Origin: an uncultured Muribaculaceae bacterium
Lineage (GTDB): Bacteria > Bacteroidota > Bacteroidia > Bacteroidales > Muribaculaceae
Assembly (NCBI GenBank): GCA_947525975.1
Contig: CANNVE010000003.1
Coordinates: 1 to 64,000 of the forward strand
DNA: 64,000 nt
Reading direction: 5' to 3'
The notes under the pieces are model-generated. The model worked only from the letters and a program-made list of their open reading frames with translations, had not been told where the DNA came from and did no database searches. The position numbers and the translations under genes are program-made. This document shows positions 55,559-57,704 of the stretch, piece by piece. How positions within the stretch are numbered: the first letter of the stretch is position 1; every line of letters begins with the position of its first letter.

Positions 55559-56273
55559 AGAGCTCCCGCACCACTCCGATCGACGGCAGCGTGTTGAGGC
55601 GCGCGTAGTGCAGGCTGTAGTAGTCAAGCGCCAGGTCGAGCATTTCATTGCGCTGTGCTCTGTTGAGGCGCATCAGGCCGAGGCTGCGGCCTGACAGGCG
55701 GCTTAGGATGTGCAGGGCCTTTGCTCTTTCCGGGTCGAGCGCGTGGGTGTGAGGCGGCGGGGCTGTCACGTATCGGGCTTCGCGCATGTCGAAGTATCGG
55801 CCTTCGGCGTATGTGCCCATGTCCGGCTCAATGCCGAGAAATATGCTCAGGCGATATAGAAAACTTAAATGGAAATTGGCCAAGGCGTTGCCTCTGGCCT
55901 TTTTTAATGCCGACGCAGTCTCGATAAGGAAATCGGTGAGGGCGGTGTCGGGGCCGCTGTCTTTGAGGGCTGCGTATAGGAAATCAGCCAGGAACATCGC
56001 TATCGCCGCCGCTGCGGGGTTGGTGATCTGGCCGGCGCCTATGGGCCTTACGTCTTTAAGCCGCGAGATGTCCCGGCCCGGGCGTATGTCGGCGATGGCC
56101 TCGAAGGTGCCGAATGGCATCATGATGGCCCTGCGGCGCTGTGCTTCGCGCCCGTTGCCCGAGGGTATGGAAACGGCCATCCGGCCATATTCGCGGCTCC
56201 AGATGGTCGCTATAGAGGCTGTATCGCTGTATTTGACGCTGCGCAGCGCTATGCATGTGACAGGGCATTCCAT
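55551..56273 (-). CDS. recO: DNA repair protein RecO
   Basis: RecO anneals single strands and helps load RecA with RecR. The 240-residue protein has the N-terminal OB-fold (CIALRSVKYSDTASIATIWS, GRMAVSIP) and a helical C-terminal domain (LANFHLSFLYRLSIFLGIEP). The zinc-binding cysteines of some RecO proteins are not seen, which is common in Bacteroidota. It faces the PorZ-like gene tail to tail with overlapping stop codons and lies beside the CACGGATT repeat unit. Confidence 0.88.
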   Translation of the reverse strand: MECPVTCIALRSVKYSDTASIATIWSREYGRMAVSIPSGNGREAQRRRAIMMPFGTFEAIADIRPGRDISRLKDVRPIGAGQITNPAAAAIAMFLADFLYAALKDSGPDTALTDFLIETASALKKARGNALANFHLSFLYRLSIFLGIEPDMGTYAEGRYFDMREARYVTAPPPHTHALDPERAKALHILSRLSGRSLGLMRLNRAQRNEMLDLALDYYSLHYARLNTLPSIGVVRELFS

Positions 56274-56354
56274 TTCTTGATATTTATAACACAGATTTCA
56301 CGCAGTATGAAGGGAGAATGCGGATTTTTATTGCACTGATATTGATGGGATGGA

Positions 56355-56389
56355 ATATACCACGGATTTCACGGATTACACGGATTTTA
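56355..56389 (+). repeat. Outer left copy of the CACGGATTn repeat
   Basis: It matches the first 35 bases of the unit at 56401 and contains three tandem CACGGATTn 9-mers after ATATAC. Spacing to the second copy is 46 bases. Confidence 0.75.
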
Positions 56390-56401
56390 GTTTTGGGAGG
56401 A

Positions 56402-56439
56402 TATACCACGGATTTCACGGATTACACGGATTTTTATTT
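56402..56439 (+). repeat. Inner left 38-bp inverted repeat
   Basis: It carries CACGGATTT, CACGGATTA, CACGGATTTTT in a row and is the exact reverse complement of 56869-56906. It ends 14 bases from the stop codon of the GxxExxY gene. Confidence 0.85.
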
Positions 56440-56453
56440 TAAGGATTTATGGT

Positions 56454-56822
56454 TTAGAATATTCTTATGATTTTCTTTAAAGAGAGTTCGCCGAAATTTA
56501 GGAGGATGCCTATCTTATGACCGGATATTTTTATATAGTTCAGCAATTGGGCTTCATGTACGGGAAGGATTTGAGATAGGGCTTTACATTCAACGATTAT
56601 ACTGTCGTAACAAATAAAATCAGCATAGTAGTCATGTTTTAGCGGGATTCCTTTATATGTGGCCACGAGGTGCATTTCCCTCACATAGGGAATGTTTCTT
56701 CTTTGAAATTCAATCTCAAGCGCATCTTGATATACATATTCAGAATATCCGCATCCCAATGTGTTGTGAACTTCTAAAGCAGCGCCGATTATATTGTATC
56801 TTTCAGTTTCTTTGACAAGCAT
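56454..56822 (-). CDS. GxxExxY protein (PD-(D/E)xK_3-like)
   Basis: The 122-residue protein has the family motif GCGYSEYVY (Gly25, Glu28, Tyr31) and the nuclease-like core Asp68 (DYYADF) with Glu78-x-Lys80 (IIVECKALS). An HEAQLLNYI helix follows, and the protein is complete (KKIIRIF end). GxxExxY proteins are widespread, short and of unknown function; the fold prediction is a PD-(D/E)xK nuclease. It is intact, AT-rich and flanked by the 38-bp inverted repeats, with no partner gene. Confidence 0.85.
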   Translation of the reverse strand: MLVKETERYNIIGAALEVHNTLGCGYSEYVYQDALEIEFQRRNIPYVREMHLVATYKGIPLKHDYYADFICYDSIIVECKALSQILPVHEAQLLNYIKISGHKIGILLNFGELSLKKIIRIF

Positions 56823-56868
56823 ATTAAAACAATATCCGTATAACTTAATTATGGAACTTAAATCCGTG

Positions 56869-56906
56869 AAATAAAAATCCGTGTAATCCGTGAAATCCGT
56901 GGTATA
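56869..56906 (-). repeat. Right 38-bp inverted repeat
   Basis: It is the exact reverse complement of 56402-56439 and sits 46 bases upstream of the GxxExxY start codon. An extra partial unit (AATCCGTGAA, 56861-56870) adjoins it. Confidence 0.85.
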
Positions 56907-56933
56907 CTATTCTCCACCGAGGTACGTGGTTAA

Positions 56934-57704
56934 TTATTCCACACCTAAGATTTTGCTCCAGAAGGGGCGCATTTTGCGTGATGGCCAGCCGTGGCAGCCC
57001 ATGGGGAGGCGGCGCCCGTTGAGCTCGTAGCACCACGCCGGGTATTTGTCGAATGCGAAGTCAAGCGCCTCCATGGCGGTAGGATAGGTGAAGCTCTCCT
57101 GCATGGCCCAGAACACGTCTTCGGGCTGCCCCTTGGGGCCGATCTCGTTGAGGGCGGCCAATTCCCCCGCTTTCAGCCGGCACACGTTCTCGTGGCTTGA
57201 GATTTTGCGCAGCGACAGGCCGCCGTTGCCCACTTTGTCGTAGATGGCAATCTTTGAATACAGCCCCTTTCTCCGGCGGCGCCAATCCTCCGCCTTCTTT
57301 ATCCACGACATCGGCGGATAGCGGTTGATGCGGCGTTTCAGCCATGGCGCGCCCACATAGTCGTATCCTTTCGCGCACCACTCGTCGAGCCGGTCGCTGA
57401 AGATGTAAGTGTCAAGCTGGGCCACGAGCATATATTCGTATTGGCTGAAAGCGGCGTAGAAGTCGGGCGAAGTCATGAGCCTGTTGTAGCCTTTGATGCC
57501 CTTGAAGTATTGCGGATCGAAGTCTATGGTCTTAAGTGCGGGATATTGTGACAGGACGCGGCTAAGGTCGAGTCCACGTGGCTTCACCACGTATATGTCG
57601 CGGTTTGAGAGGGTGTGGCAGATGCTGCGCAGCGACAATGCTTCGTCGGCTGTGATCGTGTCTTTGTACATAGGCACGATTACTGCTATTTTCTTTTCAG
57701 GCAT
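56934..57704 (-). CDS. DUF5672 family protein (glycosyltransferase-like)
   Basis: The 256-residue protein matches the DUF5672 family, often found in polysaccharide and LPS clusters. It begins IAVIVPMYKDTITADEALSL and has EYMLVAQLDTYIFSDRLDEW (a DxD-like acidic segment), YDYVGAPWLKRR, and VGNGGLSLRKIS then QPEDVFW, features reminiscent of GT-A acceptor sites. It is probably a cytoplasmic sugar transferase; donor and acceptor are unknown. Its 5' end overlaps the kinase-like gene by 19 bases. Confidence 0.8.
   Translation of the reverse strand: MPEKKIAVIVPMYKDTITADEALSLRSICHTLSNRDIYVVKPRGLDLSRVLSQYPALKTIDFDPQYFKGIKGYNRLMTSPDFYAAFSQYEYMLVAQLDTYIFSDRLDEWCAKGYDYVGAPWLKRRINRYPPMSWIKKAEDWRRRRKGLYSKIAIYDKVGNGGLSLRKISSHENVCRLKAGELAALNEIGPKGQPEDVFWAMQESFTYPTAMEALDFAFDKYPAWCYELNGRRLPMGCHGWPSRKMRPFWSKILGVE

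What the first reader, a model, noticed from the sequence alone, without database searches (positions are those of the whole stretch)
56355..56906. GxxExxY nuclease-like gene enclosed by a perfect 38-bp inverted repeat made of CACGGATTn units
Seen: 56402-56439 and 56869-56906 are exact reverse complements, each with three tandem CACGGATTn 9-mers; a further direct copy lies at 56355. Together they enclose a single intact GxxExxY gene and nothing else. The DNA is much more AT-rich than recO and the envelope genes beside it. From memory, CCACGGATT-type repeats also flank GxxExxY genes in other phyla, but the pairing has no described mechanism that I know of. The PD-(D/E)xK-like protein may recognise or cut these repeats, making a self-linked cassette or non-autonomous mobile unit.
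Basis: partly seen in the sequence, partly recalled or inferred. Interest (0 to 1): 0.8.

Follow-up and report, generated by a model that had tools for sequence, protein, structure and literature searches.

The report
Nuclease genes with matching repeat arms
Small nuclease genes found in many bacterial phyla sit between mirror-image arrays of a short repeat whose sequence differs from gene to gene and tracks the protein, and gene-less copies of such arrays are scattered over the chromosome, which points to an undescribed kind of self-linked DNA element.

Summary
In detail: a perfect 38-bp inverted repeat of CACGGATTn units encloses one intact GxxExxY (PDDEXK_3) gene in a 36% GC insert that the nearest relative lacks. 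It is not a local oddity. Of 155 GxxExxY genes of the same phylum, 123 have inverted flanks above the 95th percentile of control ORFs. The arms are imperfect tandem heptamers (CRCDRAK, 8-11 bp apart) pointing inward; the motif held in 36 loci from other phyla, about 50-fold or more over background. Each gene has its own unit, shared by its two arms but rarely by paralogues of the same genome, and the unit covaries with the protein (residue 8 Thr goes with G at unit position 5 in 71 of 72 genes). Gene-less arrays are dispersed, mainly in genomes that hold a GxxExxY gene. Two close relatives carry different gene-plus-arm cassettes at one site. The model has a Cas4-like core. Best reading: a REPtron-like element built on an unrelated nuclease that recognises its own arms and spreads gene-less copies in trans. 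Binding, cutting and movement are inferred. Against it: G473 has 97 arrays and no gene found, the gene-bearing unit shows no recent copies, and no target-site duplication was found.

The parts
56274..56949 (.). stretch absent from the nearest relative G473, where recO and the DUF5672 gene are about 28 bp apart
   Evidence: DNA homology with L112 ends at 56273 and resumes at 56950
56285..56340 (+). decayed third copy of the left arm (TATAACACAGATTTCACGC..)
   Evidence: 83% match of 56285-56307 to the other two copies; extent to 56340 read by eye
56355..56394 (+). second, direct copy of the left arm, three CACGGATT units
   Evidence: 95% over 40 nt
56402..56439 (+). left arm, three CACGGATTn units
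   Evidence: exact reverse complement of 56869-56906
56454..56822 (-). GxxExxY (PDDEXK_3) nuclease-like gene, 122 aa; the residues invariant in 30 homologues (D68, E78, K80, Q92, Y96) are present
   Evidence: model mean pLDDT 93.1
56861..56868 (-). additional CACGGATT unit inside the right arm
56869..56906 (-). right arm, three CACGGATTn units

Best explanation
The feature is one member of a widespread family of chromosomal elements: one small PD-(D/E)xK (Cas4-like) nuclease gene between two inward-facing arrays of imperfect tandem heptamers. SHOWN by sequence comparison: the gene-array link, its inverted symmetry, the gene-specific unit, covariation of unit and protein, excess of dispersed arrays in genomes holding the gene, empty sites, one replacement of gene plus arms between near-identical flanks, and low dN/dS of the gene. 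INFERRED: the protein binds its own units (the 8-11 bp spacing is near one helical turn, so perhaps several copies along one face), cuts or nicks within the paired arms (duplex or extruded hairpin), and this starts copying or excision of arm-bounded DNA; gene-less pairs are copied in trans, as REPINs are thought to be by RAYTs, while the gene-bearing unit is mostly inherited vertically.
For: Symmetry: own-flank score median 17 (n=155) against 9.5 for 125 control ORFs, p=4.8e-32; 123 of 155 above the control 95th percentile. Inward tandems 7.9 and 9.9 per kb next to the gene, 0-0.5 beyond 500 bp. Other phyla: 12.1 and 14.3 per kb against 0-0.25; 31 of 34 above the control 95th percentile. Arms share the majority heptamer in 87 of 143 (permuted mean 19, max 35); own arms 26 of 42 against cross-paralogue 4 of 62 in the same genomes. 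Unit follows protein; residue 8 / unit position 5: Thr:G 71, Thr:A 1, Ser:A 46, Ser:G 27, 70/1/44/26 after removing 95% duplicates, Thr:G 18 of 18 and Ser:A 9 of 14 in other phyla. Dispersed tandems: CGCAAAG 974 in 152 genomes with the gene, 40 in 144 without; CACAGAG 522 and 9; 0 of 5000 family-stratified shuffles reach it. Empty site; cassette replacement with 95% identical flanks; crcB next to nth without the gene in 5 of 30 loci. dN/dS about 0.02-0.09 in 5 pairs.
Against: G473 has 97 CACGGATT tandems but no GxxExxY hit at 94% completeness; G172 (8 CGCAAAG) and G304 (5 CACAGAG) also lack the gene, and two family members without the gene (G056, G097) have 1-2 exact CACGGATT tandems. 32 of 155 genes do not exceed the control 95th percentile, and 40 of 157 have no CRCDRAK tandem within 300 bp. 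No sampled pair of genes in one genome is over 80% identical in DNA, so no recent copying of the gene-bearing unit is seen. No target-site duplication was found. Genomes whose sampled genes have other units can still have 49-101 CGCAAAG tandems (their genes were not all sampled). The covarying residues were picked from about 110 residues and four unit positions. No biochemistry.
Confidence: 0.6

Rival explanations
1. The arms are binding sites that regulate or protect the nuclease gene, or hairpins that a domesticated nuclease processes for the host; dispersed arrays spread by other means.
For: Low dN/dS, syntenic orthologues between species and no recent same-genome copies, G473 arrays without a gene.
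Against: Excess of dispersed arrays in gene-bearing genomes within families and whole-cassette replacement are not expected of plain operators.
Confidence: 0.17
2. Homing-type drive: the nuclease cuts alleles that lack the element, and repair from an element-bearing copy carries gene and arms along at fixed intergenic sites; the arms mark or protect the site and dispersed arrays are remnants.
For: Empty sites and replacement exactly between conserved genes.
Against: Does not by itself explain the inverted tandem units, their covariation with the protein or the many gene-less pairs without gene remnants.
Confidence: 0.13
3. The gene is a passenger: another enzyme, for example a REP-type HuH transposase, moves the arrays and GxxExxY merely tends to be caught between them.
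For: Some genomes have arrays without a detected GxxExxY gene. RAYT presence could not be searched.
Against: Gene-by-gene match of arms, different units at paralogues of one genome, covariation with the GxxExxY protein.
Confidence: 0.06
4. A defence or toxin-like system with the repeats as marks of self.
For: Weak Cas4 similarity in PADLOC for two of three proteins (E 7e-5 and 0.002).
Against: No PADLOC hit for the window protein; no second gene inside the arms here.
Confidence: 0.04

Closest known systems
REPtron / REPIN with RAYT (TnpA-REP); abstracts of PMC3116915 and PMC8266576 read
   Same: Enzyme gene associated with cognate short repeats; dispersed extragenic inverted doublets able to form hairpins; enzyme and repeat groups coevolve.
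   Different: The enzyme there is a HuH tyrosine transposase, here a PD-(D/E)xK nuclease; repeats there are single palindromes of about 20-40 bp, here arms of 2-4 tandem heptamers; found here in many phyla.
GxxExxY protein family TIGR04256 / PDDEXK_3 PF13366
   Same: The window gene is a full-length member.
   Different: The held literature shows only the name in gene lists (passages; listings); no link to repeats seen there.
Cas4 / RecB / lambda-exonuclease-like nucleases
Free-standing homing endonuclease genes (recalled)
   Same: Intergenic nuclease gene, empty alleles, local replacement.
   Different: Inverted tandem arms and dispersed gene-less copies are not part of such genes as I know them.
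MITEs and IS elements (recalled)
   Same: Inverted ends, short gene-less derivatives beside a coding element.
   Different: No DDE or HuH transposase in the window element, no target-site duplication found, no recent copies of the coding unit.

Membership tests
TIGR04256 / PF13366 (GxxExxY, PDDEXK_3) | profile score above the curated cut-off | tested here: met
   134.4 bits against 35; 127.4 bits against 22
TIGR04256 / PF13366 (GxxExxY, PDDEXK_3) | D..ExK catalytic residues | tested here: met
   D68, E78, K80 invariant in 30 homologues including the window protein; activity not tested
REPtron (RAYT + REP) | HuH Y1 transposase gene between the repeats | tested here: not met
   the enclosed ORF is PDDEXK_3
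REPtron (RAYT + REP) | dispersed extragenic inverted doublets of the cognate repeat | tested here: met
   22 clusters in 17 own-genome regions, none in an ORF of 90 aa or more; 10 have both orientations, each + then - (one reads as two elements), 12 have one orientation
REPtron (RAYT + REP) | repeat is a single REP palindrome rather than a tandem array | tested here: not met
   arms are tandem 9-mers/heptamers
Transposon / MITE | inverted ends with gene-less derivatives | tested here: met
Transposon / MITE | target-site duplication | tested here: inconclusive
   none seen; flanks too diverged at the empty sites
Transposon / MITE | recent copies of the coding unit in one genome | tested here: not met
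   no sampled same-genome pair over 80% DNA identity; not all copies were sampled
Cas4 | Cas4-like fold | tested here: met
   4ic1 best
Cas4 | cas1/cas2 neighbours and a CRISPR array | tested here: not met
   immediate neighbours in the window are recO and a DUF5672 gene; not examined across the other loci

The most novel reading that the evidence does not exclude
GxxExxY genes define a new, phylum-spanning class of genome element: a minimal Cas4-like nuclease that recognises inward arrays of its own heptamer through a partly readable residue-to-base code (residue 8 with unit position 5; residues 65/67 beside the catalytic Asp68 with position 2; residues 46/69 with position 4) and spreads gene-less array pairs in trans. 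It would account for CACAGAG-, CGCAAAG-, CACGAAG- and CACGGATT-type repeats in many bacteria.
Probability: 0.52. Interest if true: 0.92.

Novelty: categorically new. Interest (0 to 1): 0.85.

Why it matters
GxxExxY genes were found in 152 of 296 genomes of the phylum and in many other phyla, yet the held papers that name the family only list it. If the arms are its recognition sites, one family would explain both an orphan nuclease and a broad class of unexplained bacterial repeats, give a second, unrelated solution to the REP-RAYT arrangement, and supply many naturally varied protein-DNA pairs from which a recognition code can be read and tested.

Tried and rejected
Chance or composition: rejected by shuffles, control ORFs and cross-pairs. 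The reversed-pattern control was 0 in the own genome; over the 296 genomes it summed, by my hand tally, to about 50 for CGCAAAG against 1014 matches and about 35 for CACAGAG against 531 (mostly two genomes), so genomes without the gene are near that background. Phage cargo: 1 confirmed relative in a pattern scan of IMG/VR with the A2 set, no match in 50,697 phage records with one protein at E 1e-5, 8 of 72,556 plasmid records; one alga virus lists a GxxExxY gene (passage). Rfam: no match at gathering score in 4 loci. Remnants of the gene in gene-less elements: none by tblastn in 37 loci except the known second gene in L098. Target-site duplications: sought by indel scan of 18 syntenic pairs and at the yaaA site without success. 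Longer synteny of G000:C3 with G473:C11: only about 11 kb around recO and one inverted block of about 7 kb. Literature: repeat strings gave 0 papers and 1 irrelevant listing; family names gave lists only; broader terms gave nothing relevant by title and abstract.

Dropped or biased rows: the 161 genes of the phylum are high-scoring matches picked from capped lists, not a random draw, and not all copies of a genome. 6 of 161 were left out of the symmetry test and 4 of 161 out of the tandem count for short flanks. The 80 named loci are the best 80 of 574 confirmed, ranked by likeness to one protein type. 65 of 241 genes without three CRCDRAK units are outside the covariation tests. Five of the 241 proteins are at least 95% identical to another, two of them the same genome in two collections; the residue-8 table was recounted without them, the other tests were not. 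2 of 36 other-phyla loci were left out of the symmetry test. 1 of 14 yaaA-site elements was left out. 3 of 8 orthologue pairs of unequal length gave no dN/dS. CRCDRAK was read from the loci; only the other-phyla loci are a hold-out for it. Residue 8 was found with all sets pooled, so one search is a split, not a true hold-out.

Full report
The observation. The inverted repeat is exact over 38 bp at the stated coordinates. It has three CACGGATT units per arm, a further unit inside the right arm, one direct copy and one decayed copy to the left. It encloses the GxxExxY gene. The insert is 36% GC against 60% and 57% for its neighbours. In G473, whose RecO is 80% identical, recO and the DUF5672 gene lie about 28 bp apart and the whole stretch is missing.

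The own genome. CACGGATTnCACGGATT occurs at 42 places, the reversed control at none. There are two GxxExxY genes; the second has arms of another unit, ACAGGAG. The 17 regions fetched around the dispersed places hold 22 clusters of two or more units, none inside an ORF of 90 aa or more. Ten clusters have both orientations, each + then - like the gene-bearing one (L100, ++--+---, reads as two elements in a row); twelve have one orientation only.

Is the link general? I used 161 high-scoring GxxExxY genes from genomes of the same phylum. That this phylum is Bacteroidota in the wide sense is inferred from loci identical or near-identical to named Ignavibacteria, Bacteroidia and Flavobacterium records. 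Comparing each gene's upstream 300 bp with the reverse complement of its downstream 300 bp gave a median of 17 (n=155) against 9.5 for 125 ORFs of the same loci (p=4.8e-32) and 9.5 for mismatched loci; 89 of 155 beat all of 20 mismatched partners. Against the ORFs, 123 of 155 exceed the 95th percentile and 95 the 99th. Direct-repeat scores are also high in part of the loci (44 of 155 above 18.5), which I did not pursue. The arms are imperfect tandem heptamers. The commonest are CACAGAG, CGCAAAG, CGCAGAG, CACAAAG, CACGGAG and CACGAAG; T-ending kinds such as CGCAGAT, CACAGAT and CACGGAT are rarer. Successive units are mostly 9 or 10 bp apart (229 and 213), then 8 or 11 (81 and 65). Inward tandems of CRCDRAK stand at 7.9 and 9.9 per kb in the first 100 bp on the two sides, outward ones at 2.1 and 2.4, and inward ones at 0-0.5 beyond 500 bp. 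Of 157 genes 70 have an inward tandem on both sides within 300 bp, 47 on one and 40 on neither; several of the 40 have other repeated units.

Other phyla. A scan of named genomes kept the best 80 of 574 confirmed loci; 36 are outside the Bacteroidota-Chlorobi-Ignavibacteria group by their titles. In these the motif taken gave 12.1 and 14.3 per kb beside the gene against 0-0.25 beyond 500 bp, and 31 of 34 exceed the control 95th percentile in the symmetry test, p=3.8e-15 against 70 ORFs. The titles include Planctomycetota, Chloroflexota, Cyanobacteria, Acidobacteria, several proteobacterial classes, Verrucomicrobia, Sumerlaeota, Omnitrophota, Nitrospinota and Hydrogenedentota.

Each gene has its own unit. 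In 143 genes with two or more units on each side, both arms share the majority heptamer in 87 (permuted mean 19, maximum 35), and unit position 7 in 143. In multi-copy genomes own arms match in 26 of 42, arms of different paralogues in 4 of 62. This speaks against a genome-wide mutational cause. The unit follows the protein. The nearest homologue below 60% identity in another genome has the same whole unit in 44 of 176 (permuted mean 24, maximum 36) and the same position 7 in 153 (mean 130, maximum 144); at that cut positions 2, 4 and 5 exceed the permuted mean but not the maximum. Below 70%, positions 2 and 5 exceed it (121 against 116; 122 against 114), position 4 does not. The strongest single pairing is residue 8 with unit position 5: Thr with G 71, with A 1; Ser with A 46, with G 27; 70, 1, 44, 26 after removing near-duplicates. 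On 30 independent pairs the change Ser-Thr with A-G is seen 9 times and its reverse once. Taken alone, the other phyla give Thr:G 18 of 18 and Ser:A 9 of 14 (p=7e-5), and Ile67 with A at position 2 in 11 of 11. Residues 65, 67 and 69 lie on the strand that carries Asp68, residue 8 in the first helix. I call this suggestive of a recognition code, no more: the residues were picked from about 110 and four unit positions, with all sets pooled.

Dispersed copies and the gene. Over 296 genomes CGCAAAG tandems total 974 in the 152 genomes with a gene and 40 in the 144 without; CACAGAG tandems 522 and 9. Shuffling within the 21 families that have both states did not reach the observed value in 5000 trials. 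These counts include the genes' own arms. Genomes with a sampled gene of a given unit have more tandems of that unit than genomes whose sampled genes have other units (CACAGAG median 5.5 against 0, p=2.5e-4; CGCAAAG 6 against 2, p=0.002), though some of the latter have 49-101 CGCAAAG copies. Of twenty dispersed places read in two genomes, 15 are inward pairs, 3 have one orientation and 2 (L336, L339) begin with the - arm; many have outer ends of the type AACC...GGTT. L336 lies within a long open frame, so not every one is clearly intergenic. At one site behind yaaA, 14 of 30 loci have units in both orientations, and in 3 of 13 aligned elements the inner stem has matched changes on both sides (L420, L422, L426; one more, L427, has a one-sided change; read).

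Movement. Gene-bearing units look mostly stable: no sampled same-genome pair is over 80% identical, orthologues keep their neighbours, and dN/dS is about 0.02-0.09 in 5 of 8 pairs that could be scored. But between crcB and nth, G449 and G456 carry genes of 45% amino-acid identity with unrelated arms, while flanks are 95% identical over 1373 and 787 bp. In 5 of 30 examined loci crcB lies beside nth with no GxxExxY hit (the junction was read only in L386). A second, looser case is L150/L190.

What speaks against. G473 has 97 arrays and no gene found. Its assembly is 94% complete and a gene between repeats is easily lost, but I could not show that. G172 and G304 are smaller cases, and in the family sample 2 of the 6 genomes with the exact CACGGATT tandem have no gene hit. 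There is no target duplication, no recent copy of the gene-bearing unit and no biochemistry.

Comparison. It works like a REPtron: enzyme gene, cognate repeats, dispersed inverted doublets (abstracts of PMC3116915 and PMC8266576). It is not one: the enzyme is unrelated and the repeats are built differently. I found no description of the pairing in the held library; most subscription papers and preprints are not in it.

Noticed in passing
L010, L015, L018, L061 (own genome): A second palindrome, GTGCGTTTCKGAGAAACGCACCTCC, lies beside several CACGGATT elements.
   Followed up: no
L414, L422: A different short palindrome (TCCCGA..TCGGGA type) sits inside an array unit, as if inserted there.
   Followed up: no
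L410-L439, downstream of yaaA: A further degenerate array with units like TNCTAAG / TTCTGAG precedes the CGCAAAG element at the same site.
   Followed up: no
L358, L359: Arms of some GxxExxY genes repeat a much longer composite unit (CACGGAG or CACGAAG plus about 20 bp).
   Followed up: no
L023, L036, L041, L049, L050 and others: Long direct repeats (32-86 bp) flank some GxxExxY genes in addition to the inverted arms.
   Followed up: no
L362 1992-2941: The nth gene beside the replaced cassette in G449 is split over two frames.
   Followed up: no
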